Shown here piece by piece: positions 25,554 to 47,514 of a stretch of 64,000 nucleotides of DNA. Source of the stretch: Clavaria fumosa. Its lineage: Eukaryota; Basidiomycota; Agaricomycetes; Agaricales; Clavariaceae. Location: positions 2,646,501 to 2,710,500 of the forward strand of contig OX637795.1 of NCBI GenBank assembly GCA_951802425.1, read 5' to 3'. The notes beneath the pieces are model-generated. The model had not been told where the DNA came from. It saw nothing but the letters and a program-made list of their open reading frames with translations, and ran no database searches. Every line of letters begins with the position of its first letter. Position 1 is the stretch's first letter. A program made the translations under genes and the position numbers.

Positions 25554-25778
25554 TGTAAGGCTATAGGCCTTTTCTATTCTTTTATTACATAAGATACATA
25601 CCTTAATAGTCTACTAGCATAGCCGCTTAGGCTATGCTTACATCAGCGGCCCCTAGAGGGCCGCTCGCCTATATATATCGCATTGCAACTGTACAGAGAG
25701 GGTAGATCCCTCTACATAGAACTACCATACTCAATATACAGTTGAGTCCGGTTCTTTTGAGGGATAGAAAGTATTACA
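25554..25778 (+). repeat. 5' LTR of element 2
   Basis: 225 bp. Contains stacked hairpins: CATAGCC/GGCTATG, AGCGGCCC (25645-25652) / GGGCCGCT (25658-25665), and GAGGG/CCCTC. Confidence 0.93.
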
Positions 25779-25816
25779 ACTTTTTTGAACCTTCAACACA
25801 ACAAGTGTGGCTAGAA

Positions 25817-28529: not shown

Positions 28530-30518
28530 TGTTATGGATCTGGTACTGGATGCAGTCAGAAATGAGTCACTGAGAGTCAGGATGACTCAGACAGGTCCTC
28601 AATTCCTTATGCAGTTGGTCTACAGGACTAGTAGATCCTCCAGTTCCATACCTTCCTGCTAACAGTATTGAAACCAACACTGCTAGCAAGGCATTGCTTT
28701 GGGCAGATATTATTATTAGTTAGTAACCTAAGTCACAACATCCCATGGGCTTAGCCATTGACCTCCATAGTCTGCCTCAACCTGGTATCACTCCACAGGT
28801 TGATACTATGGCTCAATGACTGACCACTCCATAGGTATTGCACACTTAAGCCAAATTAATGTAGATAGGTCAAAATAGATCAGTGAATAGGCAGCTAACC
28901 AGACACAGGAGAAACAAGCTGAAGAGTTCATGAGATTCTCCTGGTCTTGTAGACCATTCTACCTCTATAAACCACTGCCTAATTCTCAGTACTTGGCTAG
29001 CTATTCACTACTTACTCTGATGAACACAGTAGTACTATGTACAGTACAGTACCTTGTACATCATACTAAAATATTCATAACTGGCTCAATACTTACTGCG
29101 CCGAGGGGAGCCGGCACAGGGCGGCTCGTTCGAAGCCTGGGTACCTTTGGGTACCCAGATCACTTGACCAGACTAAGTCCTTAGTCAGCAGATACTACAT
29201 TTAGTTTAACTAGACCCTGTCCTTAGTTTTACTAAATATGTCCTTAGCTCCGTGGGGAGCTAGACTCAGGCTTAGTCCTTTTGCAGGATGGTTCAATCGA
29301 TGAGTGGGTACGTAATGATGCCTGGAACGCGAAGTTCCGCCGGCTATTTATACTCAAATTCGGGTACCTACTACATTTGGAAGAATACAGCATAGCTCCT
29401 TAATTAGTAGTCCTAACATCCCGTCTAAGGACTCTAAATTAAGGAGAATTCAGTGGCTTTACATATCAGGTAAGATCATAATTTTATCTTATCTCCTCAT
29501 TGAGATATTTCATCTCGAACATTCCAGTATATCTAAAAATAATCATATTGAGTCATACTGACTCAATGCCAGGGGCCCAAACGTCGGGGATTGTGGGGAA
29601 GGACCCCACAATCGCCCCCGATCGCTTCTGCGACGCTCCGCGGCATTCCCGGCCTCGATCGCATCGTCTTTTCGTCCATACCTTCTTTGCTTCCTCTTAT
29701 CTTCCCCATACTAGCCATAACTAAGTGCATCTAGACTTATTTAGTATGTGTTTCACCCCTAGACTATGCTATGTATGTACTAGCAAGGTCCTGACATAAG
29801 GGAAGAGGTAGGGAGGGCTGAGGGATTGTGCACGAAAGTTCACGAGTGCACAATCCCTTGATATGGATGAGTAGTCCATATTTGGTAGTGTGGCATCGTC
29901 GGCCATCGCTCCCAACCTGCCACTGTGGGAACTGAGCCAGTCCATCGGTCCTTGATCACCCGATCGAGGTCCGATCGTGATCAGGACTGTCCCCACAGTG
30001 TTACTATACTGGCAGACTTGTACCTTCGAGTCGCAGCGCTGTATCTAAACCGCAAACGCTCCCTCCCTTTCGCAAACTTGCAGAAAGGAGCCTGTAGACC
30101 ACCCCCACACTTCTGTCTGTTTAGATTTTCCTATTTCCTAGCCATCCAAACGCTATTTGTCTTTTATGTAGAAGAAGCCACTAGATCAATATTATTTACT
30201 TTAAGGAACTAATAACCGTTATTTCCTTTCGCAAACTTGGAATTAAGGGTTGTCAAGGCATAGGAATCGAACGGTATCAACCGCATCTTTGTGCGGTTCC
30301 TGGTTCTTGCTCTAGAGCCCCATCTTTCTCTGAGTATAGAATGATTGCAGTTCTTACTCTGGATGGCTAACCAAAATTAGTTGCTTCCATGGCTATTGGT
30401 ACATAGGCACATGTAGATAAGGCCATAGGCTTGTTAGGCTAATGAGACGCACACTTGTGGAGCTTCCAGACAAGGAGAAAGGCTAAACATAGTAAGGTAA
30501 GTACTTGACACCCTAACA
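28530..30518 (-). repeat. 3' LTR of element 3 (left copy)
   Basis: 1,989 bp, unusually long for a Ty3/gypsy LTR. Holds strong inverted repeats, including GATTGTGGGG (29589-29598) / CCCCACAATC (29604-29613) and a 13-bp stem starting at 29821 with its partner ending at 29858. Small open frames in it have no recognisable product. Confidence 0.95.
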
Positions 30519-30530
30519 CTTCCCCCCCTG
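30519..30530 (-). other. Polypurine tract of element 3
   Basis: Minus strand reads CAGGGGGGGAAG directly against the LTR, the expected plus-strand primer site; it fixes the element's orientation. Confidence 0.85.
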
Positions 30531-30537
30531 CGTCGAA

Positions 30538-31434
30538 TTAGTCGCTGCAATCGCCCAGCTCACTGCTGCATGTCTTCATCGGAATCCCTACGATATCTGT
30601 AAGCCCTAGGTGGCTTAGCAACTTAACTACCCCTTCTAACTCTTCTGGGACTACCTCATCCCTAGTGTAACCTTCCACACACCCCCAACGACGATCCTGG
30701 AGGGAGAAAACGGTGGTGTGGGTCGCTAAGAACTCGCGCAGGCTGTCAATGGCGTCCGACTCGAAGTAGGAGGGTCCTCGGCGCTCCTCGTCGTCTTCCC
30801 CCCCATCAAACAACTCCTCAAGCAACGACTGGCGGCGTAAGAAGTTAACCTCCTCGAAAACTCGATCAGCAAACATCCCAAAGTCGCTGGGATGCGCATC
30901 GCGCAGCTCGACGAAGCCTCCCCACCTCCAGAGACTCTCCTCGCCCTTCCGAGCACTCCTGCGCATCGCCTCGCTGATCCAGCGAACTCCCTGGATGCCA
31001 ACACACTGCAGTGTCGCAATAATGAGCCGCAAGTTCTCCACTGGCTGCGCAGAGACGAGGGGATTACAGTCGGGGTGAGTTTCGGCATAGACGATGCTGG
31101 GGAAGCTCATCTCGATCTCCTGGAGCGCCTCCGCCGGTATGCACGAAGGCATGGGTCCCTCAGACACACCAGGTATGTAGTTGTGTGCTGCACATAAGAT
31201 AATTCGTCCTAACCTCTGTAAAGTGTACCAGAGGCCATGCGCGAGACCAGGCTTGATGCCATGCAGGTCGTTCGGTCCACCGATCGAGTAGAAATCGAGT
31301 TCTGTGACATTGTAGTGGAGGAGAGACGAGTCGAGGCTGCGGAGGAACAGCGTCTGGAGCAGGCGAGCGGTGAGGATGACTTCATGAGTCGAGGCGAACG
31401 GCGAGATGTAGGTGCTGAGGGTGGGGATGGCCAT
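30538..31434 (-). CDS. Extra ORF downstream of pol in element 3 (298 aa, unknown)
   Basis: ATG at 31434, stop 8 bp before the polypurine tract, same strand as gag-pol. I do not recognise the family. It looks like a soluble protein (YNVTELDFYSIGGPNDLHG, GVRWISEAMRRSARKGEESL) with an acidic loop (FDGGEDDEERRG), no signal peptide and no membrane segment, so it is not envelope-like. It is visibly richer in G+C than the neighbouring pol, which suggests a captured host segment. Could also be a family-specific accessory gene. Confidence 0.6.
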   Translation of the reverse strand: MAIPTLSTYISPFASTHEVILTARLLQTLFLRSLDSSLLHYNVTELDFYSIGGPNDLHGIKPGLAHGLWYTLQRLGRIILCAAHNYIPGVSEGPMPSCIPAEALQEIEMSFPSIVYAETHPDCNPLVSAQPVENLRLIIATLQCVGIQGVRWISEAMRRSARKGEESLWRWGGFVELRDAHPSDFGMFADRVFEEVNFLRRQSLLEELFDGGEDDEERRGPSYFESDAIDSLREFLATHTTVFSLQDRRWGCVEGYTRDEVVPEELEGVVKLLSHLGLTDIVGIPMKTCSSELGDCSD

Positions 31435-31631
31435 GGCTAGTTGACTGGGCGACTTCCTGGGGCTTCAGCTAATTGCAGAACTTCTTACACACCCTAGGAT
31501 GTACCTACAGTATCCTGACTTGTCCTAGACTCCCAAGAATGACTCCAACTTGTTCTAACTCATCTAGAACTAGTCCCTGAGTCGCCTGATCCTTCTCCCT
31601 CTGACCTGTCCGCTCTCTGACTCATTCTTAC

Positions 31632-34600
31632 TCAGGAGCGATTCCCTGGAGGGCTAGCTCGCTCCTGCCATGTCTTGAGGACTCCTGGCGCGTTCTTGAG
31701 CTGCCTGGCAGTCAGCCATTCGTCTGCTTCAGGCCCATAGCCAGTAAACCTTGTTTTGAACAGCCTGATTCGTTTACTTCCTCTCTTCCTAAGTTTCTCA
31801 CCTACTATCCTTTCAACTTCATGCTCAGGTAAGTCCTGGAAGTCCTCTCTGCTGAGAGGTTGGGTAGGCCTGGTGCCTAGCTCTTCTGGAGAGGGATTGT
31901 ACCTCTCTAAATGAGCTATGTTGATGACAGGATGTATTCCAAAGGATGCAGGCATTCTAAGCCTATAAGTGACAGGGCTGATCTTCTGAATAATCTCAAA
32001 GGGACCTCCATACTTCATCAACAGCTTTTGTCCCTTTCCTTCTTCAGTCCTGTAGAGTTGGAGTGAATGAGGATTGATCAGGACCAGATCTCCCTCCTCA
32101 AACTCATAGGTAAGCCTTCCTCGATTATAAGCCCTCTTCTGGAACACCTGACCTAGAAGTAAGGCTTCTTTTGCTCTGCTCCTCTCTGCCTCAAAGTGAG
32201 AAACCATATCACTGGCTTGTAGATCTAATGTACTGGAAGACATCCCCCCCCCAGAGTGTGAGTCTTGATTCACTGGTCTGGTGATAGAACTGGGAGAGTG
32301 CACAATGGTAGAGCTAGTGACAGGATGGTATCCTCTGAGCAAACATGCAGGTGAGAAGCCTGTAGCAGTGTGTGGACTAGTATTGTAAGACAAGGCTAGT
32401 CCATCCAGGAGCTTACTCCAGTCATCTTTCTGAGGACTTACATAAGTCCTCAAGGCTACTTCTAGACTTTGATTCATAATCTCAGTCTGTCCATCAGCCT
32501 GAGGGTGGTATGAAGTAGTTAAGGATCTACTCATTCCCATGAGTCTGCAGACTTCTGCCCAGAAGCTTCCTTTCCATCTGGTATCCCTGTCAGAAATGAC
32601 CTGCCTGGGTATACCATACTGGGAAATGACATGATGGAAGAACAGCTTAGCTGTCTCTACTTCCTTGACAGTAGTAGTAGTGGGGATGAATATGGCATAC
32701 TTAGTGAGTTTGTCCACTATGACCAGTATGCTATCATATCCATCAGACTCTGGTAGCTCAGGAATGAAGTCCATGGTGACTACTTCAAAAGGTTGTGAGG
32801 GTATAGGAATGGGTTGCAACAATCCTACTGGACCATGTCTTCTATGTTTTGTCTTCTGGCAGATATCACAGGTAGAGGTGTACTCCTTGATATCTCTAGA
32901 CATCCTAGGCCAGTAGTAAGTGGAGGCTATTCTGTTGTAAGTCTTGTAGTATCCACCATGAGCAGCCTCAGAAAGGGAGTTATGGACTTCTCCCATAATT
33001 TCCAGTCTGAGACTAAGTGGTACACATAGCCTGTTGTTTCCATTCCAATCTTCAAAGTATACCAACCCATTAGTATGCTCATAGTACTGAGGGTACTCTG
33101 GGTTAGATACATCTTGTTCTGCCCTCTTTGACTTAAGGACTCTAGAGAAGTGAGAGTCTTCAAGGTAACCAGCTCTCCACTTCTCTAGCTCCTTGGAGTC
33201 AATGCCAACAAGGATAGAGTAAGATTTTGAAGTTTGATAGGGCATTGTGAGAACATGCCCATCAGAGGTGAGAATCTCCACACTCTCTGAAGTCAGAGGA
33301 TCCTGACCATCATATTCTTCTTCTGAGCTGATGTATTTGGTAGCAACTCTAAGAAGCTTCTCTTCAAATTTCTCACCCAACTCCTCATACATATTGAGAA
33401 GAGGATCTTCAATATCAGAGGCTTGACCAGACCTCCAATTCCTGTCTGATGAAGCCTTGAGTTGAAGTTCCTGAGTAGGGTCTGAAGAGGGTCCTAACTG
33501 GTAAGGGACTCTCCTCCTCAGCCTAGATATAGGGTCTACATTGGAGTGAACTCTACCAGCCCTATGTACAATTTTGAGGTTTGGGTAAGATGAAAGCACT
33601 GTACCCCAGCTAAGCAACCTCCTATTGACATTCTGATAGGTTCTACTCCAAGTAAGGGCTGCATGATCTGTTATGGCAGTTACTACACTTCCTTCCAAGA
33701 AGCACTGGAACTTAATTAGTCCTTCCTTCAGGGCCAATGCTTCTCTCTCAGTAGGTGAGTAATTCCTTTCAGCAGCCTTAAGGATTCTTGACCAATAACT
33801 GATGACTCTCTCCAGGTGGACAACAGTGTCTTCAAAGTTATTAGCCCAAGAATCTTGATAAGTGGGTTCCTCTGGGTTTGCAACAGCAAAGATAAGTTTA
33901 GGGACAGGCTGCTTATCCTGGTAAGCCTTCCATAACTTATCATAAATCCTTGTTCCTTTCAAGTCCTTGACCTTAATAGGTTGGACCTGTTGGAGTATAG
34001 CTCCAAGGCCATAGTCACAGGCATCAGTGTACAGCCTATAAGGTAACCCTGGCATGGCATATGCCCTAACAGGTGCATTGGTAAGGACTTGTTTGCACAG
34101 TTCAAAAGCTTCCTGTTGTAAAGATCCCCAATCCCACTTATGGTCCTTCCTAAGAAGTTTGAATAGGGGACTAGCTATCCATGCATAGTAAGGGATGTAG
34201 GCTGAGAAATACACCATCATCCCTAAGAAGGTCTGGAGTTCACTAACATTCTTTGGCTCAGCTAGTTGAACTATAGTATCAACCTTCTCCCTATGGGTGG
34301 ATAGTCCTAGTCTGGACACCTTTTGTCCTAATAGCAGTAAAGACTGGTAAGCAAAATGACATTTATTTGGAGCCAGAGTGATGTTTCCTTTGATGATAGC
34401 CTTGAATACAAGGTCTAGGTGCTTCAAGTGGTCTTCAAAGGTAGTAGAGTAGACCACTATATCATCAATGTATACCAAGGTGAACACCCATAAGTAGGGT
34501 GCTAGCACACCTTGCATCACCCTTTGGAAGGTACTAGGACCATTCCTAAGTCCAAATGGCATTCTATTGAATTGGTGAAGACCTCTATGGGTCCTAAATG

Positions 34601-37600
34601 CTGTTTTCTCTCTGTCTTCTTTCTTGATAGTGATTTGAGTGAATCCAGCAAGTGCATCCAAGGTAGACAACCATTGACATCCAGTTAATGCTTGAAGAAT
34701 ATCCTCCTGCCTAGGCAAAGGGAATTCATCAGGGATGGTGATAGCATTAAGTCTCCTATAGTCAATGACCATCCTTGGTTTACCATTTCTATAGACAATG
34801 AATGCAGGAGCTCCCCATGGGCTCTTAGAAGGGGATATCACTCCATTATTCAGCCAAGTGTCAATTTGCTCATCCATAACTTCTCTCTTAGCAGGTGAAG
34901 ATGAACCAAAGGGTGGTAGGGATATCTCTTTGGATTCAGGCCTTAGCTTAATCTCCAATTCTCCTGGATGACTCCCTAACCTTCCATCAAGTCCAAAGGC
35001 AAGATGGTTAGTCAGTAATACTTTGTGTAGAGCCTTTGCCTGATCTTTAGTGAGATCCTTAGAAATATCCACTGCCTCCAACAACTCTCCAGTCTTGACA
35101 AGATCTGGTGGAGTTTCAGAACCTTTGGGTCCTCCTTCTAGAGGGTCTTCTGCTAATGGGTCTTCAGTCCCTGAGTACTGAAGAAGGTTTTTGTCCAGTA
35201 GCTCTGAGGCAACCATGCCAGACTTGAGATCTCCACTCTCATAGTGTGAATGGATACTCCTGACAAGTGAAGCATAGTTCTCAGCTTTCACTATGTCTTC
35301 ATAGCTACAATGGGAAGTCTGCACTAACCAAGTTTTAGGATTGTGAGCCACTCCAAGCACCTGACCCTTATGGATGACAATAGGATAACTTGCAAAGTTG
35401 GTAACATGTATCCTAGGGTTATCCTTGGTGATGACAGAGTCAGGGCAAGCATACACATCCTCCAGACTTCTCCCATTGAAGAATATCTTCTCTATGTAGA
35501 CATAGTCCAATTTCCTTGGGAAGTTGACTCTGACAGAGATATACTTTGAGGTTCCAGGATGGATAATAGCTTCAACAGCAGATCTAGCATATGGGTCTGA
35601 TGAGGCCTTCCTTTCTCTTCTCTTGACTCTCTGAGAGTGGTGATGAAGGTTCCTTTTGTTCCTATGGTCTTTACTCATAGAGATCTTAAATGAGTGACCT
35701 TCATCATCCAAGTAGGAAGGTGAAGTGGAACTTTTGACCAGCACACTTCTACCAGCATCCCCAAACAGCAGATAGGTCTCTCCTTCCTTCCTCATGACTG
35801 AGATAGAGTACTGATCTGCAAAGTCATTTCCCAAGATAAAGGGTGTAGTCATTCCCTTGACTACATAAGCATCTACATTCAACTGAACTGGACCCTCTGA
35901 AGTTTCAAAATAGATGTCTGTGTTGATGAAACCAGAGATGGAGCTTCTGCCAGTTACTTGAATGAGATTGATCTTTTGACCAGTCTTGACCTTAGGAGGA
36001 TTATCCAATCCTTCAAGGGTGGTCAAAGATATTAAGGTAATATCAGATCCAGAGTCCACTATCACATCAGTCAGGTTCTCCTTGAAACTTCCTAAGTAAC
36101 ACTGGGTCCTAGTTGCCTTGGATCCAAGGAAAGAAGTTCCAGGGGGTCTAGCCATTAGCTTGTGAAGCTTTAGTAGGGTCTGGCTTGACCCTGAGAGTCC
36201 TCTGACTGAATAATGTCTAGCTGCTACTTGATGAGCCAACCTCCTTCTGCTCCTCCTATTGAGTGAAGGTCTTGGCTTCATCACAAAATCATCAGCAGCT
36301 ACATGGTGAACTATGGCTGATATAGAGGGGTTGTCCTGTTCCTTTTCTGCCTGAGCCTGTGTATCCATAGTACCCTGAGAGGTCTCACCCTCCAGAACTG
36401 AAATCTCTTCCTTAGGTTCCACTACTGGGTCAGTATGGAGGACAGCAGATTCAGGTAACTGGAGGGCCTCATGAAAATCCTCCTGATCTTCATGGCTCTC
36501 AGCTTCTTCTTCATCTGATAATCCATAGTACAGATCATCATACTCAGCCTGGGCTTCTTCTTCCTCTGAGTCTACCTCAACAGCATGGACTCTAACAGCT
36601 TTATTCCCCTTCCTTGCATACTTGCAATCAGGGTCCCAATGTTTCCCACTGCCACAGTGCCTACAAGGTCTGGCACCTATAGACTCAGGTGGTTTCTTGG
36701 AAACATTCTTGTCATCCCTAGGAAACTTTGGAGACTGCATCTTACTGGTCCATCCTACTAGGTGAGTTCTGGCAGACTTGAGCCTAGATTTGCCTACAGG
36801 CTCCCTGAAAAAGAACTTCTTCTTCTCTCTAGGTGGGTCCATCCTAAGTAGATTGTCTTCATGATACTTGATGGCCTCCTGGAATTCTACTAATGTGTTG
36901 TAGAAATGAGGGTTGAGTATGTTAACCCAAGGTGGTGGTGCTCCATTCATTATTTCCAAGATCAACTCTGAGTCTGACATGTTGTAGACTAGAGTCAGAA
37001 GTTCCACCTTCCTGATGTAATACTCACTTGGCAACTCATGGGAATTCTCAAGATCTCTATAGGATGCCTTGTTGGCCCTAGCCTTCTGCTTATCCAGCCA
37101 ACTCCTGTTCATATAATAGCTTCTGATGGCTTGTCTGAGTGTACCCCAATCTGCTTCAATTTCTCTTCTCTTCTCAACAGGTAATGACCAATACCAAACT
37201 TCAGCAGATCTGGTTAGTCTTTGGGGTACAAGGCTTCCTAGCTGCTTAAAGACAGGGTAGGATCTCTCAGATATCTGTGTGACTCTCTTCAGCCATTTAG
37301 CTAGTGTGTCTGAGTTTCCATCCCACTCAGGTATGTCAGAAGCCTTAAGCTTAGGGTCAAACACATAAGCATAAGGGTCTGCAAGTGGAGTTAGGTTCCT
37401 TTGGGGATTGGGGTCCTCTGGCCTTAAAGGTCCTAAAGGTCCTGGTGGGTCTCTAGGGTCAGGGGGATCTCCTGGCCCTCCTGGGCCTCCTGGTGCTCTA
37501 GAACCTCTAGAGCTCCCTGGTCCAGAGCTTCCTGAAGCGATGGGTCTTCTTCCTGGTGGTCTCCTGGGTGGCCCATGAGGTGGCTCATGGTCTGGATCTT

Positions 37601-38789
37601 CATCTGGGTCTCCTCCTGGAGGGGATCCTGGGATAGGCTCGTGAATTGGTGGAAGGGGTTCCCTTCTAGGGGGAATCCTGGGTGGTGAATAGGTCTGTGA
37701 CCTGGGCTGTTCTCTCTGAAAATCTTCAGAGTAAGGAGTCCTCTCCTTTCCTTTCCCAGCATACTCAAGTTCTTCCTCCTCTTCCCTTTCATAAGTAGTG
37801 GTCAAGGGAGAGGGATCTTCTAGTGTTCCTCTAGTAAAGGTTACAAACTGAGGAAGGGTGCTAAGATCCTTGAGTCCAGAAGTGAAGTCTGGAAAATGCA
37901 TGGACTCTCTGATATTTCTCTGCAGAGTCCTGGAAGGTCCTGCAACCTGAGAGACAGAAGGGGGAATAGGGTCTGATGGAGTCTTGCCTCCAGTGATCTT
38001 CTGGTAAACCCCAGAGCCTTCAGGGGTTGGTGGTGGTTTCTTCTTCAACTCTTGCCACATCTTCTCCTCACTAGTTTCTTTCTTAGATCCAACCTCACCT
38101 AGGATTTGATCCATGGTGGCCAAGAAACTTTCCACTTCATCAGCAAATGCACAACCTAGCACTTCATAGTCACTGGCAGACAAGAGTACCATGTGGCTCC
38201 CTCCCCTTCCAATCATGGGGAGAGAGGGAATGCCCATCTCAGTGTCTAGGTTTGCTTCCATAGCCCTCTTCTTCAACACAGCCAAAGCCTCCTTCAAAGA
38301 TTTGTACTTGTTATGATCCAAGAAGTACCCTCTCTCTGGTACCAACCAAATCTTCCTAAACAACTCCTTCAACAGGTCCAACTCTCTGATGTACCTCTTT
38401 GCCACAGCTCTGCTCATCCTAGCATAACCAACTCTTCTCTGGAGATAATGTTCTCCAAGCACAGCTCCTTCATTCCTCCTTCCAACATGATCTTGTGATA
38501 GATCTCTCCTATGAAACAAAGTTGGGAGTAGACCAGGGTAACTCTGAGCACTGGTCAGGTCTTGCCTCTCCAATTTCATAGGTCCAGCCACTTCTGACAG
38601 GAAGGGTACTGCCCCTAGAAGTAGACTTCTAGGATCCTCAACAACTCCAGTAATGGGTGTCACTGGGATGCGAGGAGTGGGATCCCCTTCCTCTACCCTG
38701 GGTTCAACAACCTCAGGCAGTCCAGAAGTGGGAGGAAGACCTTCAGGGGTACTAGGTCTAATGTCCTCTGCAGTCATAATAGCTGACAT
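31632..38789 (-). CDS. gag-pol: Element 3 gag-pol fusion polyprotein (2,385 aa, intact)
   Basis: One uninterrupted ORF. gag in the first 720 residues, with a Pro/Gly-rich linker and a zinc knuckle CRHCGSGKHWDPDC near 710. Retropepsin VIVDSGSDITLI near 910. Reverse transcriptase with YIDDIVVYS near 1440. RNase H from RLYTDACDYGLGAIL. Integrase with a zinc finger (CDICQKTK) and DDE residues in VTMDFIPELP, SDRDTRW and HPQADGQTEIMNQ. A degenerate chromodomain-like end (FTGYGPEADEWLTARQL). Fusion of gag and pol removes the need for frameshifting. All catalytic residues checked are present, so it could be active. Confidence 0.95.
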   Translation of the reverse strand: MSAIMTAEDIRPSTPEGLPPTSGLPEVVEPRVEEGDPTPRIPVTPITGVVEDPRSLLLGAVPFLSEVAGPMKLERQDLTSAQSYPGLLPTLFHRRDLSQDHVGRRNEGAVLGEHYLQRRVGYARMSRAVAKRYIRELDLLKELFRKIWLVPERGYFLDHNKYKSLKEALAVLKKRAMEANLDTEMGIPSLPMIGRGGSHMVLLSASDYEVLGCAFADEVESFLATMDQILGEVGSKKETSEEKMWQELKKKPPPTPEGSGVYQKITGGKTPSDPIPPSVSQVAGPSRTLQRNIRESMHFPDFTSGLKDLSTLPQFVTFTRGTLEDPSPLTTTYEREEEEELEYAGKGKERTPYSEDFQREQPRSQTYSPPRIPPRREPLPPIHEPIPGSPPGGDPDEDPDHEPPHGPPRRPPGRRPIASGSSGPGSSRGSRAPGGPGGPGDPPDPRDPPGPLGPLRPEDPNPQRNLTPLADPYAYVFDPKLKASDIPEWDGNSDTLAKWLKRVTQISERSYPVFKQLGSLVPQRLTRSAEVWYWSLPVEKRREIEADWGTLRQAIRSYYMNRSWLDKQKARANKASYRDLENSHELPSEYYIRKVELLTLVYNMSDSELILEIMNGAPPPWVNILNPHFYNTLVEFQEAIKYHEDNLLRMDPPREKKKFFFREPVGKSRLKSARTHLVGWTSKMQSPKFPRDDKNVSKKPPESIGARPCRHCGSGKHWDPDCKYARKGNKAVRVHAVEVDSEEEEAQAEYDDLYYGLSDEEEAESHEDQEDFHEALQLPESAVLHTDPVVEPKEEISVLEGETSQGTMDTQAQAEKEQDNPSISAIVHHVAADDFVMKPRPSLNRRSRRRLAHQVAARHYSVRGLSGSSQTLLKLHKLMARPPGTSFLGSKATRTQCYLGSFKENLTDVIVDSGSDITLISLTTLEGLDNPPKVKTGQKINLIQVTGRSSISGFINTDIYFETSEGPVQLNVDAYVVKGMTTPFILGNDFADQYSISVMRKEGETYLLFGDAGRSVLVKSSTSPSYLDDEGHSFKISMSKDHRNKRNLHHHSQRVKRRERKASSDPYARSAVEAIIHPGTSKYISVRVNFPRKLDYVYIEKIFFNGRSLEDVYACPDSVITKDNPRIHVTNFASYPIVIHKGQVLGVAHNPKTWLVQTSHCSYEDIVKAENYASLVRSIHSHYESGDLKSGMVASELLDKNLLQYSGTEDPLAEDPLEGGPKGSETPPDLVKTGELLEAVDISKDLTKDQAKALHKVLLTNHLAFGLDGRLGSHPGELEIKLRPESKEISLPPFGSSSPAKREVMDEQIDTWLNNGVISPSKSPWGAPAFIVYRNGKPRMVIDYRRLNAITIPDEFPLPRQEDILQALTGCQWLSTLDALAGFTQITIKKEDREKTAFRTHRGLHQFNRMPFGLRNGPSTFQRVMQGVLAPYLWVFTLVYIDDIVVYSTTFEDHLKHLDLVFKAIIKGNITLAPNKCHFAYQSLLLLGQKVSRLGLSTHREKVDTIVQLAEPKNVSELQTFLGMMVYFSAYIPYYAWIASPLFKLLRKDHKWDWGSLQQEAFELCKQVLTNAPVRAYAMPGLPYRLYTDACDYGLGAILQQVQPIKVKDLKGTRIYDKLWKAYQDKQPVPKLIFAVANPEEPTYQDSWANNFEDTVVHLERVISYWSRILKAAERNYSPTEREALALKEGLIKFQCFLEGSVVTAITDHAALTWSRTYQNVNRRLLSWGTVLSSYPNLKIVHRAGRVHSNVDPISRLRRRVPYQLGPSSDPTQELQLKASSDRNWRSGQASDIEDPLLNMYEELGEKFEEKLLRVATKYISSEEEYDGQDPLTSESVEILTSDGHVLTMPYQTSKSYSILVGIDSKELEKWRAGYLEDSHFSRVLKSKRAEQDVSNPEYPQYYEHTNGLVYFEDWNGNNRLCVPLSLRLEIMGEVHNSLSEAAHGGYYKTYNRIASTYYWPRMSRDIKEYTSTCDICQKTKHRRHGPVGLLQPIPIPSQPFEVVTMDFIPELPESDGYDSILVIVDKLTKYAIFIPTTTTVKEVETAKLFFHHVISQYGIPRQVISDRDTRWKGSFWAEVCRLMGMSRSLTTSYHPQADGQTEIMNQSLEVALRTYVSPQKDDWSKLLDGLALSYNTSPHTATGFSPACLLRGYHPVTSSTIVHSPSSITRPVNQDSHSGGGMSSSTLDLQASDMVSHFEAERSRAKEALLLGQVFQKRAYNRGRLTYEFEEGDLVLINPHSLQLYRTEEGKGQKLLMKYGGPFEIIQKISPVTYRLRMPASFGIHPVINIAHLERYNPSPEELGTRPTQPLSREDFQDLPEHEVERIVGEKLRKRGSKRIRLFKTRFTGYGPEADEWLTARQLKNAPGVLKTWQERASPPGNRS

Positions 38790-39159
38790 CCTTCTATGCT
38801 TTCAAACACAACAATCAACCTCCAGCTCAATAGGCTATAGATCTCCTGTTAATGAACAACAACTTCTACCAATTGCTATGGGATTTAATACCACAAGGGT
38901 TCTCAGGGAGCAGCAGTACAGTTAGGCTGAACACAGTTGACAATAGTGATTAGCTTGTGAAAAGCAGAGCAGGGTGAGTGCACTGTATGTAAGCAAGAAA
39001 ATTGCAGTGCTGGAAGCAGGGCAATCCTGGGGGGCTCCTGGGGCACAAGGCTGGCCCTTATATACCTTTTGCCTCCTAGGTTGTCCTTATTTGGACATCT
39101 CCTAGTATGGGTTTCCTGTAATTAAAATAATAATAATATGATCCCACAGTGTCCACCAA
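38790..39159 (-). other. Element 3 leader and primer binding site
   Basis: About 350 bp between the right LTR and the gag-pol ATG. On the minus strand the first bases after the LTR include TGGTGGACACTGTGGGAT (about 39158-39141), the expected form of a tRNA-primed site (complement of a 3' CCA end). The tRNA is not identified. Confidence 0.75.
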
Positions 39160-41148
39160 TGTTATGGATCTGGTACTGGATGCAGTCAGAAATGAGTCAC
39201 TGAGAGTCAGGATGACTCAGACAGGTCCTCAATTCCTTATGCAGTTGGTCTACAGGACTAGTAGATCCTCCAGTTCCATACCTTCCTGCTAACAGTATTG
39301 AAACCAACACTGCTAGCAAGGCATTGCTTTGGGCAGATATTATTATTAGTTAGTAACCTAAGTCACAACATCCCATGGGCTTAGCCATTGACCTCCATAG
39401 TCTGCCTCAACCTGGTATCACTCCACAGGTTGATACTATGGCTCAATGACTGACCACTCCATAGGTATTGCACACTTAAGCCAAATTAATGTAGATAGGT
39501 CAAAATAGATCAGTGAATAGGCAGCTAACCAGACACAGGAGAAACAAGCTGAAGAGTTCATGAGATTCTCCTGGTCTTGTAGACCATTCTACCTCTATAA
39601 ACCACTGCCTAATTCTCAGTACTTGGCTAGCTATTCACTACTTACTCTGATGAACACAGTAGTACTATGTACAGTACAGTACCTTGTACATCATACTAAA
39701 ATATTCATAACTGGCTCAATACTTACTGCGCCGAGGGGAGCCGGCACAGGGCGGCTCGTTCGAAGCCTGGGTACCTTTGGGTACCCAGATCACTTGACCA
39801 GACTAAGTCCTTAGTCAGCAGATACTACATTTAGTTTAACTAGACCCTGTCCTTAGTTTTACTAAATATGTCCTTAGCTCCGTGGGGAGCTAGACTCAGG
39901 CTTAGTCCTTTTGCAGGATGGTTCAATCGATGAGTGGGTACGTAATGATGCCTGGAACGCGAAGTTCCGCCGGCTATTTATACTCAAATTCGGGTACCTA
40001 CTACATTTGGAAGAATACAGCATAGCTCCTTAATTAGTAGTCCTAACATCCCGTCTAAGGACTCTAAATTAAGGAGAATTCAGTGGCTTTACATATCAGG
40101 TAAGATCATAATTTTATCTTATCTCCTCATTGAGATATTTCATCTCGAACATTCCAGTATATCTAAAAATAATCATATTGAGTCATACTGACTCAATGCC
40201 AGGGGCCCAAACGTCGGGGATTGTGGGGAAGGACCCCACAATCGCCCCCGATCGCTTCTGCGACGCTCCGCGGCATTCCCGGCCTCGATCGCATCGTCTT
40301 TTCGTCCATACCTTCTTTGCTTCCTCTTATCTTCCCCATACTAGCCATAACTAAGTGCATCTAGACTTATTTAGTATGTGTTTCACCCCTAGACTATGCT
40401 ATGTATGTACTAGCAAGGTCCTGACATAAGGGAAGAGGTAGGGAGGGCTGAGGGATTGTGCACGAAAGTTCACGAGTGCACAATCCCTTGATATGGATGA
40501 GTAGTCCATATTTGGTAGTGTGGCATCGTCGGCCATCGCTCCCAACCTGCCACTGTGGGAACTGAGCCAGTCCATCGGTCCTTGATCACCCGATCGAGGT
40601 CCGATCGTGATCAGGACTGTCCCCACAGTGTTACTATACTGGCAGACTTGTACCTTCGAGTCGCAGCGCTGTATCTAAACCGCAAACGCTCCCTCCCTTT
40701 CGCAAACTTGCAGAAAGGAGCCTGTAGACCACCCCCACACTTCTGTCTGTTTAGATTTTCCTATTTCCTAGCCATCCAAACGCTATTTGTCTTTTATGTA
40801 GAAGAAGCCACTAGATCAATATTATTTACTTTAAGGAACTAATAACCGTTATTTCCTTTCGCAAACTTGGAATTAAGGGTTGTCAAGGCATAGGAATCGA
40901 ACGGTATCAACCGCATCTTTGTGCGGTTCCTGGTTCTTGCTCTAGAGCCCCATCTTTCTCTGAGTATAGAATGATTGCAGTTCTTACTCTGGATGGCTAA
41001 CCAAAATTAGTTGCTTCCATGGCTATTGGTACATAGGCACATGTAGATAAGGCCATAGGCTTGTTAGGCTAATGAGACGCACACTTGTGGAGCTTCCAGA
41101 CAAGGAGAAAGGCTAAACATAGTAAGGTAAGTACTTGACACCCTAACA
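39160..41148 (-). repeat. 5' LTR of element 3 (right copy)
   Basis: Same 1,989 bp as 28530-30518. It abuts the PBS and carries the second GAAGG target copy at 41149-41153. Confidence 0.95.
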
Positions 41149-44100
41149 GAAGGGGGGAGAGGCTAACGCCTCTGTAAAGATAGACGATGCCTACCTCGAA
41201 GGCAGGCGTGAGTACTGGTTTAACCAGTACGCTGAGCTCTTTGGGGGAGTTCCCCCCAGACTGCCGCTGTTTCGGGCAGTGAACCACCGCATACCCTTAA
41301 TAGACGAAAAGCAAGTCTATAATTATTACCTGCCTCGGTGTGCTGAGGCATTTAAGGAACAATTCCTTGAGAAAGTGAACCGTTATATTACTAACGGTTG
41401 GTGGGAAGCAGGAGCGGCATCGCAAGCAGCTCCTATGTTATGCATACCAAAAAGCAGCCGGAACCCGCTGCTACGGACAGTCGTAGACTGTCGGAAACGG
41501 AATGCGAACACAGTACGGGATATTACCCCGTTGCCTGATCAGGATCAGATCAGGCAGGACGTGGTTAGAGCTGCGTATAGGTCAAAGATTGACCTATCGG
41601 ACGCGTATGAGCAAGTACGCATAGAGCCTGAGGACGTGTGGAAGACGGCGTTCGCAACCATCTTGGGCACCATGTTCTCACAGGTGATGCAGATAGGGGA
41701 TTGTAATGCCCCTGCTACCTTCCAGCGCCTGATGACGCACATATTTTGTCATCAATTGGGAAAGTACATGCATGTGTACTTAGACGATGTATTCGTCTTC
41801 TCCAAGACCTTGGAGGACCATGAGCATCACTTAAAGACGGTCTTTGAGACCCTCAAAGGCGCAAGCCTTTTCTTGAGCAAGAAGAAGTGCTCGTTATACG
41901 CGAAGAGCGTAGATTACTTAGGGCATATAATAGATGCCCGAGGAATCCACGTCACAGTGGATAAAATGGATAAAATCCATAACTGGAAAACGCCGACAAG
42001 CGTTAACGAGGTGCAGAGGTTCCTCGGATTAGTACAGTACATCGGACAGTTCATGCCTGATCTGTCCGCTTACACTGGCCCTTTGGCTAGTCTGTGTAGT
42101 GAAACGTTCGCGTTTCACTGGAGACCACTCCATGACAAGTGCATGGAGATGATTAAGGCATTGGCATGTAAAACGCCAATATTACGCCCGGTAGACGTGG
42201 CAGTACAGGAGCCAATCTGGCTCGTGTGCGATGCGTCAGTGTCGGGTGTAGGGGCCATGTATGGCCAGGGAAAGACATGGGAAACCTGCCGTCCGGCGGG
42301 GTTTATGTCTAAAAGGTTCAGCCCGGCCCAGTTTAGTTACAAAACCTGGGACCGGGAGGCCTTAGCGATTGTTGAATCGCTACAGAAATGGGAGGATAAA
42401 CTCCTCGGTAGATGAATCAACGTGGTCACAGACCACGAAGCGCTGGGGTTCTTTAAGAACCAAACGCGCTTGTCTGGCCGGCAGGCCAGGTGGATGGAAT
42501 ATATGGAGAGGTTTAACTACTCCATCACTTACATTAAAGGCGACAGCAACAAAGTTGCGGATGGCCTTTCACATTACCATATGAGTGACGCGACGGATGA
42601 GATTCATCCGGATCACAAGTACGTAAAGGTGGATGTTCGCCTTGACCCTGAAGGGGACGAGTTGCCCCGCGGACGCCTGGAGGAGGTGCGCGCACTACGA
42701 GTACGCGCACCTGCCGCGGACCAGGAGACCGAGCAGGAGCAACCGCCGCCTGTGCCCCAAGCGGACGGGGATGTGAGGGACGAGATGCTCATGCCCTTAA
42801 GGCCCCGCGTGGAAGGGGGGGATAGCAGGATGCTGCAAAGCATCCATGACAGCTATGAACAGGATCGCCTGTTCAAAATAATTTGGGAGAAACCAGGAAA
42901 TTACACCAGTTTTAAGATCAGGGATGACCTGATCTTCGCTGAGAATAAAAAGGGAGATGAGGTGCTCTGCATGCCTCGTACCCTTCATGAAGGAAAAGCA
43001 TCCCTGGAAGAATAATCCAGGAAGCCCATGTGGTCCTAGGACACATGGGGTTGCGGATAACGATGGACTACATCCGCCATTACTACTGGTGGCCATTGGT
43101 GTCTAAAGACATCAATAAGTTTTGCTTGTCGTGCGGCGTGTGCCAGACGAGCAAGACTTCCCCTCAGAAGCCGCAAGGGCTTCTACACACCCTTCCGATC
43201 CCCAGGCGGCCCTGGGAATCAATAGGAATGGACTTCGTAGGTCCATTCCCTATGTTGAAAGAGGCGGACTACCTCTGGGTGGTGATCTGCTGCCTCACTT
43301 CACTGGTACACCTGGTACCAGTTACTGTTTTGGTAACGGCAGCAGAGCTAGCCTGGCTCTTTCTAACCCAGGTAGTGAGATTGCATGGGTTGCCAGGATC
43401 GATTGTGTCCAATCGTGATCTGAGATTTATGTCTGCCTTTTGGCAGGAAACACACCGACTACTCGGTGTCAAGCTGCAGATGTCCACAGCTTTCCATCTG
43501 CAGACGGATGGAGCAACAGAACGGTCGATCCGATCCGTGTCTCAGATCCTCCGATCTGTGGTCCAACCGGACCAGACAGACTGGGCGGAGCGAATTCCAA
43601 TGGTCGAATTCACCATTAACACATCAATAAGCGTGTCGACGGGGTTTGCCCCGTTTGAGCTCACTTATGGGTACATGCCCCAGATGATGGCAGAGTTGCC
43701 AGACGACCTCCGGGCAGTGCCCAGAGGGGTATGGATGTTCGCGGAGAAAGCTGCGCTCAACCTTGCAATGGCGCACGACGCGATTATAGAAAGTCGCGTC
43801 CACCAGACGTTTAACGCTAACCAGCGTAGATGGGCAGAGCACCCGTTTAGAGAGGGAGAATTAGTTTACCTCTCAATGGAGAACTTGAATCTCCCTAAAA
43901 GACAAGCTAGAAAGCTCATGCCGAAGTTTATTGGGCCATACCCAATATGGTCGTGTAGACCGGAATCGTCTACGTACGAGCTGGAGCTCCCTGACTCACT
44001 AAAGTCGAGGAGAATCCATCCGATGTTCCATGTCAGCCGGTTGCGGCGACATGAACCAAACGACAACGTGTTGTTTCCACGTCGTGAGGTGAAAGTCTTT

Positions 44101-44346
44101 TATGACTTTGGTGTGGATCCAAAGGAGGAATGGCTAGTAGACGCCATTATTGGCCATAGGTGGGAAGGCCGCCACCTGGAATGCGAGGTTCAATGGAACC
44201 TCGGGGATACGACCTGGGAGCCGTACATGGGGGTCAAAGAGCTGGCTGCTCTAGACCATTACCTTGAACTGCAAGGTGTAGACTCGTGGAGGGCGCTACC
44301 TAGGCGCCCTCGAGCAGAGCATGGACGGAGCACCCACGCGGAGTAG
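41149..44346 (+). pseudogene. pol: Element 2 RT, RNase H, integrase, chromodomain (degraded)
   Basis: Continuation of the element 2 pol frame after element 3. RT has YLDDVFVFS and QIGDCNAPATFQ; the RNase H part has VCDASVSGVGAMYG. A TGA at 42413-42415 precedes NVVTDHEALGFF. Near 43005-43015 the frame ends in TAA and pol resumes at about 43030 in another frame (indel). Integrase: HHCC finger, MDFVGPFP, then VSNRDLRF where the family has SDRD, so the second catalytic Asp is Asn; the E motif is TDGATERSIRS. Chromodomain at the end (ECEVQWNLGDTTWEPYMG). Stop TAG at 44344-44346. Confidence 0.92.
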
Positions 44347-44348
44347 TA

Positions 44349-46571
44349 ATGCGATTGAGCCAGACCGCTGGGTCGTTAGCCACAGTGATTAAGTCACGTG
44401 GTGGCTCCACCGTAAGGTACAAAACCTTAAGAGGGCCCGCCCTCTTTTTCTCTTTTTTCTTCATCAGCCATTTGTTACAATGGATGATCCGATGGGGGAA
44501 ACCCCATTTCCTCGCGCTACTCGCGCCAGGGAACTCGCTGCCGACGAGCATCGTCGGAACGGCTGGGTTGTCCCAGCCGTCATTGTCGCAAGGGGAGGAA
44601 ACTCTCCCCTGGGTACAGGATCGCATGATCCATGCGATCACCCACGGATCCTGGTGCACCCAGTGCATCGGATTCCGTCGTCACATCTTCGAGTCGCTGC
44701 TGCACTCGGATGAAGCGTTTGAACAAATGCTTAAGGAAGCGCAGGAAAGTGCTAGGCGTGAGCTCGAGCCGGAGCTCAGAATGATACAGCGCAAGTTGGA
44801 TGACTTGCATGAAGAGTATGAGAAGGGCAATGCCCTTTGCGCCGGGCACCGTCAAAAGCTTGAAAAAGCTTACGATAGCCTGGATAAGGTCGAGGCCGAC
44901 CTTAGAAAGGCGAAGGAGAAGGTTCTCTCCTTGACAGAAAAGTTGGCAAGCGCCAACGAGGAGCTCGCCGCGGTGCGAACGGCGGCGAAAGGGAAGGGAC
45001 CTGACAGGGATCCCTTGGAGCGGGACCCAAAAAGGGCCCGCACTGCTGTCTCATACACGGACATAGCGCCGCCTATGGGGGACGTGGACGTCCCCATGAA
45101 CATTGAAGAGGGGTATCCCCCTCTTCCACCTGCTGGTATTGGCCAGCAGAACCCCGATGCCTCACTGAGGCATAAACGAACCTTTGCGGAGACAGTGCTT
45201 GCGCCTCCGACAAGGGGTTATCCCTTTAATGCCCCCCACCCGGACAGGGCTCCGGATGGCTATCCCTGGCCATCGGGGATGTCCGTCAAGCCTGGTGCGT
45301 GGGCTGTCGAGTTGAAGACGGTGGAGGAGGTGATAGCCCTCAACCAGCAGGCGCACCATGGAGCGCCTGACGGCAGTTATGATATGACTGCCATAATGAA
45401 GATGCGATGGGCCATTAAGGAGGCCCAGAAGAACGCGGCAGCGGGAAAGCTGCCTATGCCAGTTGAGGACTGGCTGTTGAGGAACTGGAGAGTTCCTGCT
45501 GGCGTCGAGAAATCGGCAGACCGGGTGGCGCGCCATCTGCAGGGGCAGATGTTGCGAGAGAGCGGAGGGATGGGCGACCCATCCCTGAGGGCAGGACCCT
45601 TGGAAGTCGCAGGAGGGGGAGCACCCTCCTATCCGTCGTACCAGACATTGCCGCTGACAGCGGCAAGAGTGGTTGCGCCTCCCATTAGGGAGTTTGTAGA
45701 GACCAGGGAGCCATTGCTCCCCCAAGAGCTGTGGCTCTCCTTTGTAGGGGAGAAGGGAGAAATTCCCCCTATGAACCCGAAAGGTGACAGAGGCGCAGTG
45801 TCAGACCTGCGCTGCTGGGCCGCTGACATAAGGATGGGCAGAGCGGCCGTCCTTGGTATTGATAAGGACAGGGACTCACCCCTGTCCTTTGCACGCAAGG
45901 TGGCCATCTGGCGTACCATAATGGTGTGTGCACCGTCCTGGGCCCGAATGCGGCGCCCGTTCCTAGCTATGGCTGTAGCCCTCTTTGTGTCAAAGGGGGC
46001 GTATGCGCAGGCCATTAAAGGGAGAGTCCTCCCTGCACGACGTTCCAGGCACTGGAACACAAAGATAACGCCAACCGTCGCGCAGACGATTGAGGCGTTT
46101 GTAGACGCCAGAGTCTCTGTTGGGGAAACGGAGCTCTGGGACGAATTTGTACTCGCGTGGGCACACGAGTACGTGCGAAAGGGGAATGCCCCCTTGGACG
46201 ATGATATCCAGCTAGCGCTGGGTGAACGGGAGAAGCCTCCCATACCGCCCCGGACATATGCACTGCTAGAGTGCATAGGGCGCGGGGCGCGTCCGTGCCA
46301 TCTTCAGTTAAGCGAGAAGGCGGGAGACGAACGGAGGGGCGATGCGCCCCTGGAAGACGGTGGAAGCACGTCCACCATTAGGAACCCCCTAGGGCTACCT
46401 ATTGGGGGTTTAACAATATCCCAGACAGAGGGTGCGGGGCCCTCTCAAAAACAAAAGAAAGCGGCTAAGTCATCAGCCACTAAGGCCGCAAAGAGGCCTG
46501 TTGTGTCGTCGCCCGACTGGAGCGACGACGAGGGCGAGCCGCCGTGCGACTACGAGCAGGGCTCGGACTAA
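44349..46571 (+). CDS. Element 2 third ORF (740 aa, unknown, open)
   Basis: ATG two bases after the pol stop (TAGTAATG), in a different frame; runs 740 codons. Near residues 30-46 lies a hydrophobic run (ALFFSFFFISHLLQWM). Residues about 122-217 look like a coiled coil (RMIQRKLDDLHEEYEKG, LDKVEADLRKAKEKVLSL). The middle is Pro/Gly-rich, a helical C-terminal half follows (SFARKVAIWRTIMVCAPSW), and the end is basic then acidic (KKAAKSSATKAAKRP, DWSDDEGE). Not an envelope: no signal peptide, cleavage site or C-terminal anchor. Its open state contrasts with the broken gag-pol. The coding DNA is the densest hairpin string in the window. Confidence 0.75.
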   Translation: MRLSQTAGSLATVIKSRGGSTVRYKTLRGPALFFSFFFISHLLQWMIRWGKPHFLALLAPGNSLPTSIVGTAGLSQPSLSQGEETLPWVQDRMIHAITHGSWCTQCIGFRRHIFESLLHSDEAFEQMLKEAQESARRELEPELRMIQRKLDDLHEEYEKGNALCAGHRQKLEKAYDSLDKVEADLRKAKEKVLSLTEKLASANEELAAVRTAAKGKGPDRDPLERDPKRARTAVSYTDIAPPMGDVDVPMNIEEGYPPLPPAGIGQQNPDASLRHKRTFAETVLAPPTRGYPFNAPHPDRAPDGYPWPSGMSVKPGAWAVELKTVEEVIALNQQAHHGAPDGSYDMTAIMKMRWAIKEAQKNAAAGKLPMPVEDWLLRNWRVPAGVEKSADRVARHLQGQMLRESGGMGDPSLRAGPLEVAGGGAPSYPSYQTLPLTAARVVAPPIREFVETREPLLPQELWLSFVGEKGEIPPMNPKGDRGAVSDLRCWAADIRMGRAAVLGIDKDRDSPLSFARKVAIWRTIMVCAPSWARMRRPFLAMAVALFVSKGAYAQAIKGRVLPARRSRHWNTKITPTVAQTIEAFVDARVSVGETELWDEFVLAWAHEYVRKGNAPLDDDIQLALGEREKPPIPPRTYALLECIGRGARPCHLQLSEKAGDERRGDAPLEDGGSTSTIRNPLGLPIGGLTISQTEGAGPSQKQKKAAKSSATKAAKRPVVSSPDWSDDEGEPPCDYEQGSD

Positions 46572-46868
46572 GCGTCCGAGCTCTTTAAAAACATATGCCT
46601 ACCCCGCAGGACGAGACAGCGGCACTTGGGGCACCCCCCACTGGGGCGTGCTGCTTGTGACACGCTGTCCAACTGGGGGCAGGTCGCGCAGACCACCGGG
46701 TAGGACCTGTCAGCACCAGGCGAAGGCCCCAGGAGGGGATCGCGCCCGGTGACATGGCGGTAACCCTGCCCAAGGGGATGCGCCCCTTGTAATGTTATTC
46801 TACTTCTGCTCGTCGTCCCGCGCCGCCTGCGCGTTGCCTCTGGTTGGGGCCTCTCCGGAGGGGGAGGG

Positions 46869-47093
46869 TGTAAGGCTATAGGCCTTTTCTATTCTTTTAT
46901 TACATAAGATACATACCTTAATAGTCTACTAGCATAGCCGCTTAGGCTATGCTTACATCAGCGGCCCCTAGAGGGCTGCTCGCCTATATATATCACATCG
47001 CAACTGTACAGAGAGGGTAGATCCCTCTACATAGAACTACCATACTCAATATACAGTTGAGTCCGGTTCTTTTGAGGGATAGAAAGTATTACA
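46869..47093 (+). repeat. 3' LTR of element 2
   Basis: 225 bp, three substitutions against 25554-25778 (CCG/CTG, TCG/TCA, TTG/TCG), all at CpG. Preceded by purine tract GGAGGGGGAGGG and followed by AGCAT. Confidence 0.93.
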
Positions 47094-47514
47094 AGCATGG
47101 TGCTTGGGTACCCCTGAGTGTACTGTACAGGAGGATATTTTTATCTGAAGTAACAAAACAAGCCCCTGCCTGGGACCAGCTATCCTAATATTGAATTTGA
47201 TGGGTCAGTGTTTTGCATGTCAAGGGGAGGATATAGGGATACAGGCCGAGTGAGATTGCAGGATCCAAACCTTGCAAGCAGTGTGACAAGTGGTGCTTGG
47301 GGTAGGTGGAATTCGGAGCACCCTGAGTGTACTGTACAGGAGGATATTTTTCTCTCAAGGTAACAGAAAAATTAATCTTGTCCAACGGGATAAGCGACAG
47401 GGGAAAAACACATTATATACTAAAAGAACGACGACATAGCAACAACACAGAAAGAAAAAGTCCGTCCGAACGAACCATCCTTGTTTCGCCCGAGCGCAGC
47501 TATCAATCTATCTA
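47094..47514. other. noxR 3' flank with F-box tail fragment
   Basis: Continuation of unit 4 after element 2: an extra F-box last-exon piece at about 47157-47262, then the sequence that lies between F-box gene and noxR fragment in each unit. No independent gene. Confidence 0.65.

What the first reader, a model, noticed from the sequence alone, without database searches (positions are those of the whole stretch)
44349..46571. Coding DNA of element 2's third ORF is a near-continuous string of perfect hairpins
Seen directly: between 45078 and 45274 (about 200 nt) I count eight adjacent inverted repeats, centres often 24-29 nt apart. Examples (left arm / right arm): 44541-44547/44551-44557 CCGACGA; 44559-44567/44572-44580 ACGGCTGGG; 44619-44626/44632-44639 GATCGCAT; 45078-45085/45088-45095 GGGGACGT; 45105-45113/45118-45126 GAAGAGGGG; 45130-45136/45143-45149 CTGCTGG; 45566-45574/45578-45586 AGGGATGGG; 45648-45655/45659-45666 TTGCCGCT. 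A 6-bp stem with a loop of 3-10 nt is expected about once per 500 nt by chance. The same pattern fills element 2 gag and RT: 25859-25868/25872-25881, 25892-25900/25907-25915, 26498-26506/26511-26519, 27847-27856/27863-27872, 41532-41540/41548-41556, 41577-41585/41589-41597, 42098-42106/42111-42119 (loop TTCG). Myosin and F-box exons read for comparison show only occasional stems; element 3 coding looks sparser too. The RNA would be a chain of stem-loops overlaid on a protein code. Possible roles (inference): genome compaction for packaging, escape from silencing, translational pacing, or a mutational process that copies short inverted tracts.
Basis: seen in the sequence. Interest (0 to 1): 0.92.

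Follow-up and report, generated by a model that had tools for sequence, protein, structure and literature searches.

The report
Hairpin-studded coding DNA in a retrotransposon
The genes of one jumping element in this genome are written so that the strand folds, about every 30 to 60 letters, into a short perfect hairpin, and these hairpins appear to be protected by natural selection, probably through a nucleic-acid folding role that differs from the RNA structure known in viruses.

Summary
All 15 listed hairpins are exact. ORF3 has 43 perfect stems (6 bp or more, loop 3-10) against 5.9 in 500 protein- and codon-preserving shuffles, maximum 14. The carrier is element 2 (E2), a Ty3-type LTR retrotransposon at 25554-28529 + 41149-47094, split by E3. 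E2 has 16.4 stems/kb, E1 7.0, E3 internal 3.6, host 1.5. Eight samples from other LTR families have 0-3.3/kb.

The hairpins look selected. Among genomic copies, shared synonymous non-CpG transitions are four times rarer in stems than elsewhere (13/420 v 134/1103), while loops vary freely and CpG decay shows little or no such difference at most cut-offs.

They do not look like ordinary RNA structure. Changes to G.U are as depleted as changes to A.C, both strands fold equally well, and DNA energy rules see them better than RNA rules, opposite to MS2, Qbeta and rRNA.

Best reading: a selected, Watson-Crick-only chain of local hairpins working on both complementary strands or on single-stranded cDNA. 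The function is inferred. The literature check was mostly impossible because the paper server failed.

The parts
25554..25779 (+). E2 5' LTR (226 bp); 4 stems, 17.7/kb
   Evidence: self-BLAST, 98.7% identical to 46869-47094; stems
25706..26833 (+). E2 gag frame, first open piece (ends at an in-frame stop; the next piece is in the same frame); 12 stems, 10.7/kb
26834..28207 (+). E2 gag, second open piece: Retrotrans_gag, CCHC zinc knuckle and protease-like matches, all below curated cut-offs; 21 stems
28530..41148 (-). E3, a different Ty3-type element nested inside E2 (LTRs 28530-30518 and 39160-41148, 100% identical); coding 31632-38801 minus strand; not part of the hairpin chain (coding 3.5/kb)
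41149..42415 (+). E2 reverse transcriptase and start of RNase H; 25 stems, 19.7/kb
42416..43015 (+). E2 RNase H remainder (match just below cut-off); 7 stems
42991..44346 (+). E2 integrase ORF (H2C2 zinc-binding, Tf2-1-like SH3); 25 stems, 18.4/kb; no chromodomain and no rve core match listed
44349..46571 (+). E2 third ORF (ATG at 44349, read), sub-threshold Pfam matches only, several to coiled-coil proteins (my reading); 43 stems in frame 44304-46568
45078..45280 (+). densest run: 8 perfect stems of 5-9 bp
46869..47094 (+). E2 3' LTR; 3 stems, 13.3/kb
8095..17223 (+). E1, a third Ty3-type element (LTRs 844 bp, 100% identical) with a weaker version: LTR 10.7/kb, gag 9.5/kb, pol 7.4/kb, but leader 8939-11114 only 1.8/kb

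Best explanation
Shown: the coding and LTR sequence of the E2 family carries a dense chain of short perfect hairpins (6-10 bp, loops mostly 3-7 nt, about 16/kb), far beyond what its proteins and codon usage give, and the stems vary much less between copies than loops and other sites, at synonymous positions too, which I read as purifying selection while the element multiplies. Shown: the constraint treats G.U like A.C, both strands fold alike, and the hairpins fit DNA folding energies better than RNA ones. Inferred: selection therefore acts on single-stranded cDNA during reverse transcription, or on both complementary strands at once (sense and antisense RNA, or RNA and cDNA). The hairpins would make each strand fold on itself at once and locally, so that complementary strands anneal or switch less. 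The probability that this strand-symmetric or DNA-level reading is right is about 0.45; that the hairpins are real and selected, about 0.9.
For: Excess over codon shuffles. Shared synonymous non-CpG transitions: stems 13/420 v out 134/1103, p 9e-9; stems defined in the window copy alone: stem 17/400, loop 19/138, out 111/985 (stem v loop p 5e-4, loop v out p 0.39). CpG changes (read as decay after insertion) as control: shared CpG variants stem/out 0.99 in the 25-copy alignment, 0.76 (p 0.08) in gag, 0.82 (p 0.22) in RT; 0.82-1.12 at the 30% support cut-off. 25 window RT stems in 14 older relatives: 177 of 329 testable are perfect v 75 expected from divergence outside stems (not codon-controlled). 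G.U-making changes 12/682 (0.31 of the outside rate) and A.C-making 12/676 (0.41) equally depleted. Fold z equal on both strands. Paired windows: DNA rules exceed RNA rules in E2 (p 2e-4), E2 gag (p 1.5e-3) and E1 (p 0.049); MS2, Qbeta and rRNA lean the other way, none significant alone (p 0.19-0.33); the two groups differ, 112 v 100 windows, p 3e-7. Loops are poor in G+C, 0.458 v 0.552, as expected if loops are where strands would start to anneal.
Against: With stems defined in the window copy alone, CpG variants are also rarer in stems (0.69, p 3e-4, and 0.81, p 0.02), and at the 50% support cut-off two of four shared-CpG classes are lower (0.58, p 0.04; 0.77, p 0.03), so part of the contrast is ascertainment; at the 10% cut-off the synonymous contrast shrinks to about 0.55 (p 0.02 and 0.10). 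Non-CpG singletons are also lower in stems (0.67, 0.91, 0.67). E1's 2.2-kb non-coding leader is not hairpin-rich although it is a conserved part of the family, which a whole-genome cDNA role does not predict. Time spent as single-stranded cDNA should rise from leader to 3' end (recalled model); density in E2 rises only weakly (z 0.9; coding only 1.4), E1 coding is flat, and E1 overall (z 2.6) is driven by its empty leader. The static G.U/A.C comparison is weak even on rRNA. Subfamily differences at stem sites involve G.U in 7 of 8 cases (CpG changes not removed). Predicted loss of accessibility is modest (8-mers open 0.053 v 0.070 in ORF3).
Confidence: 0.45

Rival explanations
1. Genome-scale ordered RNA structure of the sense transcript, as in some RNA viruses: hairpins in the mRNA or genomic RNA shield it from antisense small RNAs, nucleases or sensors, or stabilise it.
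For: Hairpin chain with fold z about -2.7; loops A-rich (0.329 v 0.251); host has Piwi-domain, RdRP and Dicer-like hits; E1 has hairpins in gag/pol and LTR but not in the leader; 7 of 8 subfamily differences in stems involve G.U.
Against: No sense-strand preference; G.U as depleted as A.C among shared variants; DNA rules fit better than RNA rules, unlike MS2, Qbeta and rRNA as a group.
Confidence: 0.28
2. A mutational process made the hairpins: the growing strand folds back during reverse transcription or replication and one arm is rewritten from the other (template switching between inverted repeats).
For: Perfect Watson-Crick arms, short range only, none over 10 bp in E2, 5' arms purine-rich like the coding background, 90 v 33 stems, as if 3' arms were copies of 5' arms. 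The process is described for yeast coding genes (PMC8604942; abstract and Discussion read).
Against: It predicts double changes carried into both arms: 1 non-CpG double v 24 shared non-CpG single transitions in stems. It does not predict lower synonymous variation in stems but not loops. Samples from eight other LTR families lack hairpins. Clustered multi-base changes were not searched for separately.
Confidence: 0.17
3. Translation pacing or mRNA half-life control by coding-region hairpins.
For: E1's non-coding leader lacks hairpins while its coding region has them (p 0.001).
Against: LTRs are hairpin-rich too; a sense-only role should tolerate G.U.
Confidence: 0.07
4. Chance, composition or codon usage.
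For: None found.
Against: Synonymous and dinucleotide shuffles; mirror repeats are not enriched, 17.3 v 112.9 inverted repeats per 10 kb (E2 region including E3 LTRs).
Confidence: 0.01

Closest known systems
[quoted passage not shown]
   Same: Genome-wide excess of folding across coding sequence; suggested to shield from host defence (PMC9784701, passages read)
   Different: Here in an LTR retrotransposon; short local hairpins; no strand bias; G.U not tolerated more than A.C; fits DNA energies better
Levivirus genomes (MS2, Qbeta), where both strands are structured (recalled: thought to limit duplex formation during replication)
   Same: Both strands strongly folded, short perfect hairpins enriched
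   Different: E2 RT-ORF3 has 17.8 stems/kb v 3.6 and 6.5; phages lean to RNA rules, E2 to DNA rules; an LTR retrotransposon makes no RNA minus strand of its own (recalled)
Template-switch homogenisation of inverted-repeat arms (PMC8604942)
   Same: Perfect arms, short spacers
   Different: E2 stems vary less than other sites and show almost no propagated double changes
Ty3-type LTR retrotransposons (Metaviridae)
   Same: Gag-like, RT, RNase H and integrase order, LTRs
   Different: Extra ORF after integrase, no chromodomain match in the integrase ORF, hairpin-studded coding sequence

Membership tests
Ty3-type LTR retrotransposon | RT, RNase H, integrase in that order | tested here: met
   RVT_1, RT_RNaseH and Integrase_H2C2 in consecutive ORFs; no rve core match listed for E2
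Ty3-type LTR retrotransposon | flanking LTRs | tested here: met
   226-bp repeats at 25554 and 46869, 98.7% identical
Ty3-type LTR retrotransposon | gag and protease | tested here: inconclusive
   Retrotrans_gag, CCHC and RVP_2 matches below curated cut-offs
GORS | folding energy below shuffled controls along the whole genome | tested here: met
   z about -2.7 in E2
GORS | structure belongs to the RNA strand (strand bias, wobble tolerated) | tested here: not met
   equal strands, G.U depleted like A.C, DNA rules fit better; but the strand test is weak even for MS2 and Qbeta (p 0.14, 0.23)
GORS | genome of a positive-strand RNA virus | tested here: not met
   LTR retrotransposon
Template-switch mutation product | changes that make one arm the complement of the other | tested here: inconclusive
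   1 non-CpG double v 24 shared non-CpG single transitions speaks against; multi-base clusters not searched
Known structured RNA | match to an Rfam family | tested here: not met
   0 matches at gathering scores in 41149-47094

The most novel reading that the evidence does not exclude
A genome-scale DNA-hairpin code: synonymous sites of an LTR retrotransposon are selected so that single-stranded cDNA, or both complementary strands, folds into a continuous chain of short Watson-Crick hairpins. This would be a layer of information overlaid on the protein code and distinct from viral RNA structure, reached to different degrees by two distantly related Ty3-type families (E1, E2) in one host.
Probability: 0.3. 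Interest if true: 0.9.

Novelty: new variant of a known kind. Interest (0 to 1): 0.77.

Why it matters
Viral coding sequences can carry a structural layer, but the cases recalled here are RNA structures. A retrotransposon whose synonymous sites are spent on Watson-Crick-only, strand-symmetric hairpins, at about 2.7 to 5 times the hairpin density of Qbeta or MS2, would show that selection can write DNA-type or both-strand folding into genes. Many genomic copies (99 RT matches, a lower bound) plus CpG decay as an internal clock make it directly testable.

Tried and rejected
Chance and codon usage: rejected. General host or RT effect: not seen in eight samples of 1.2 kb, five around Tf2-1-like SH3 hits and three around Copia RT hits (0-3.3 stems/kb; highest z 2.4 in L074); their proteins were not scanned further because one search failed. 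Static interior G.U v A.C count: 10 v 10 in E2, but an rRNA and phage calibration showed little power, so I rely. The first analysis of copy variation lumped CpG changes (stem/out 0.72 for singletons, 0.87 for shared variants, no G.U preference); separating CpG from other changes sharpened the contrast. Compensatory change: nearly absent once CpG is removed. Gradient of hairpins along the cDNA: not supported. Codon register of stems: no clear preference, 47, 37, 49. ORF3 relatives: one protein, P0001, 58% identity over half the query, of 7997 scored candidates; no relative from two viral-contig scans, none among solved structures at E 0.1. Rows dropped: L048, partly misaligned, was left out of the 26-row alignment (25 left); L012 and L030 were left out of the gag alignment.

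Literature: some searches answered. Paper searches and paper look-ups failed on the server, so I make no claim that this is absent from print.

Full report
What is there. The window (G000:C2:2646501-2710500, an unnamed 48.8-Mb genome in 17 contigs; a eukaryote, probably a fungus, by my inference) holds repeated host segments broken by three LTR retrotransposons. Self-BLAST gives E1 = 8095-17223 (LTRs 844 bp, 100% identical), E2 = 25554-28529 + 41149-47094 (LTRs 226 bp, 98.7%) and E3 = 28530-41148, nested in E2 (LTRs 1989 bp, 100%). Pfam shows Ty3-type pol genes in all three. Their pol proteins are only 27-31% identical in the main pairwise alignments, so they are separate families. The finding's ORF (44349-46571) is a third E2 ORF after integrase, with sub-threshold Pfam matches only and one relative found, P0001.

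All 15 listed hairpins are exact. Counting perfect stems of 6 bp or more with loops of 3-10 nt: E2 16.4/kb, E1 7.0, E3 LTR 7.0, E3 internal 3.6, host 1.5. ORF3 has 43 against 5.88 +- 2.33 in 500 shuffles that keep the protein and codon counts (max 14). The other E2 pieces and E1 gag and pol are also far outside such shuffles; E3 coding is marginal (z 2.0) and six host ORFs are not outside. Within E2 density is 10.4 (gag start) to 19.7/kb (RT), 17.7 in the 5' LTR, and 3.4 in the 297-nt stretch before the 3' LTR. In E1 the 2.2-kb leader has 1.8/kb while gag, pol and LTR have 7.4-10.7 (leader v gag-pol p 0.001). Enrichment in E2 is local: 11.4-fold for loops of 3-5, 7.8-fold for 6-10, 3.1-fold for 11-15, 1.7-fold for 16-20, and 1.0-1.2 beyond; E1 is less sharply local, 1.7-fold at 21-40. 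No E2 stem exceeds 10 bp, where the decline from 6 to 7 bp would predict about 6.7 such stems.

Not seen in the other families sampled. Eight 1.2-kb samples (five at hits of the Tf2-1-like SH3 profile, three at hits of the Copia RT profile) have 0-3.3 stems/kb, highest z 2.4 (places). Fourteen older E2 relatives (86-93.5% identical in RT) keep 14.3-17.5/kb.

Selection. There are at least 99 E2 RT matches (a lower bound). I compared 44 RT rows, 28 gag rows and 25 rows of RT to ORF3, the window included. Most shared differences are C-to-T or G-to-A at CpG, which I read as decay after insertion (inference; the genome has DNA-methylase hits). Shared CpG variants strike stems at 0.99, 0.76 and 0.82 of the outside rate in the three alignments (p 0.92, 0.08, 0.22). 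Shared non-CpG variants, which I take to have passed through retrotransposition, are at 0.44, 0.16 and 0.48 (p 0.0015, 5e-6, 0.0013). For synonymous non-CpG transitions the figures are 13/420 in stems and 134/1103 outside (p 9e-9). With stems defined from the window copy alone: stems 17/400, loops 19/138, outside 111/985 (stem v loop p 5e-4); in that version CpG variants are also rarer in stems (0.69, 0.81), so part of the contrast there is ascertainment. At support cut-offs of 30% and 50% the synonymous non-CpG ratios for shared variants are 0.12-0.31, against CpG 0.82-1.12 at 30% but 0.58-0.78 at 50%; at 10% they are about 0.55 against CpG 0.98-1.71. In 14 older relatives 177 of 329 testable window RT stems are perfect, against 75 expected from divergence outside stems.

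What kind of structure. Changes that would make G.U are as depleted (12/682, ratio 0.31) as those that make A.C (12/676, ratio 0.41); of 51 double changes only one is free of CpG context on both sides. Fold z is alike on both strands. Scoring the same windows and shuffles with RNA and DNA energies, DNA sees more in E2 (p 2e-4), E2 gag (p 1.5e-3) and E1 (p 0.049), while MS2, Qbeta and rRNA lean the other way without significance alone; element and control windows differ at p 3e-7 (112 v 100 windows). As yardsticks, MS2 has 3.6 and Qbeta 6.5 stems/kb with z -2.6/-2.1 and -2.2/-1.9 on the two strands, E2 RT-ORF3 17.8 with -3.1/-3.0. A static count of G.U and A.C inside stems (10 v 10 in E2) says little, because rRNA itself shows only a small G.U excess. 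Against this reading, 7 of 8 differences between E2 subfamilies at stem sites involve G.U (CpG not removed).

Mechanism. Shown: dense local hairpins, constrained, G.U not spared, strand-symmetric. Inferred: the selected molecule is single-stranded cDNA or both complementary strands, each kept folded so that strands anneal or switch less. The expected rise of hairpins along the cDNA was not found (E2 z 0.9; E1 coding flat; E1 overall z 2.6 because its leader is empty), and E1's bare leader argues for some link to coding sequence. Sense-RNA shielding remains the main rival; the genome has Piwi-domain and RdRP hits and two adjacent RNase III domains in one ORF, but predicted accessibility falls only modestly. 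A purely mutational origin by template switching (PMC8604942, abstract and Discussion read) fits the perfect arms and the purine-rich 5' arms (90 v 33 stems, p 3e-7), but not the synonymous constraint or the lack of double changes.

Known or new. GORS is the nearest known concept (PMC9784701, passages read); E2 meets its folding criterion but not the RNA-strand signature or host type. I call it a new variant. Most paper searches failed, so absence from print is not claimed.

Noticed in passing
31632-38801 (E3 coding, minus strand): Almost CpG-free: 10 CpG in 7170 nt, observed/expected 0.03, while E3's LTR has 0.54 and host sequence 1.04; TpG+CpA is only slightly raised (1.15) and the LTRs are identical, so this looks like avoidance, not decay.
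   Followed up: partly
8939-11114 (E1 leader): A leader probe is 97-100% identical in 16 of 20 other matches, while a pol probe of the same element is 92-98% identical in 18 of 23; the non-coding leader seems to vary less than the coding region.
   Followed up: partly
E2 stems, whole element: 5' arms are purine-rich (90 purine-rich v 33 pyrimidine-rich of 143 stems, 13 all-purine, 0 all-pyrimidine); no significant bias in E1, E3 or host. No thermodynamic reason is evident.
   Followed up: partly
about 44520-44527: Many other E2 copies align to the window in two blocks meeting here with a short overlap, so an insertion or deletion separates the window copy from them.
   Followed up: no
28530-30518 and 39160-41148: E3's LTRs are hairpin-enriched (7.0/kb) though its interior is near background (3.6/kb).
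   Followed up: no
2700-8100, 17200-25550, 47094-48400: Repeated host segments, mostly 82-96% identical to one another, into which E1 and E2 inserted.
   Followed up: no
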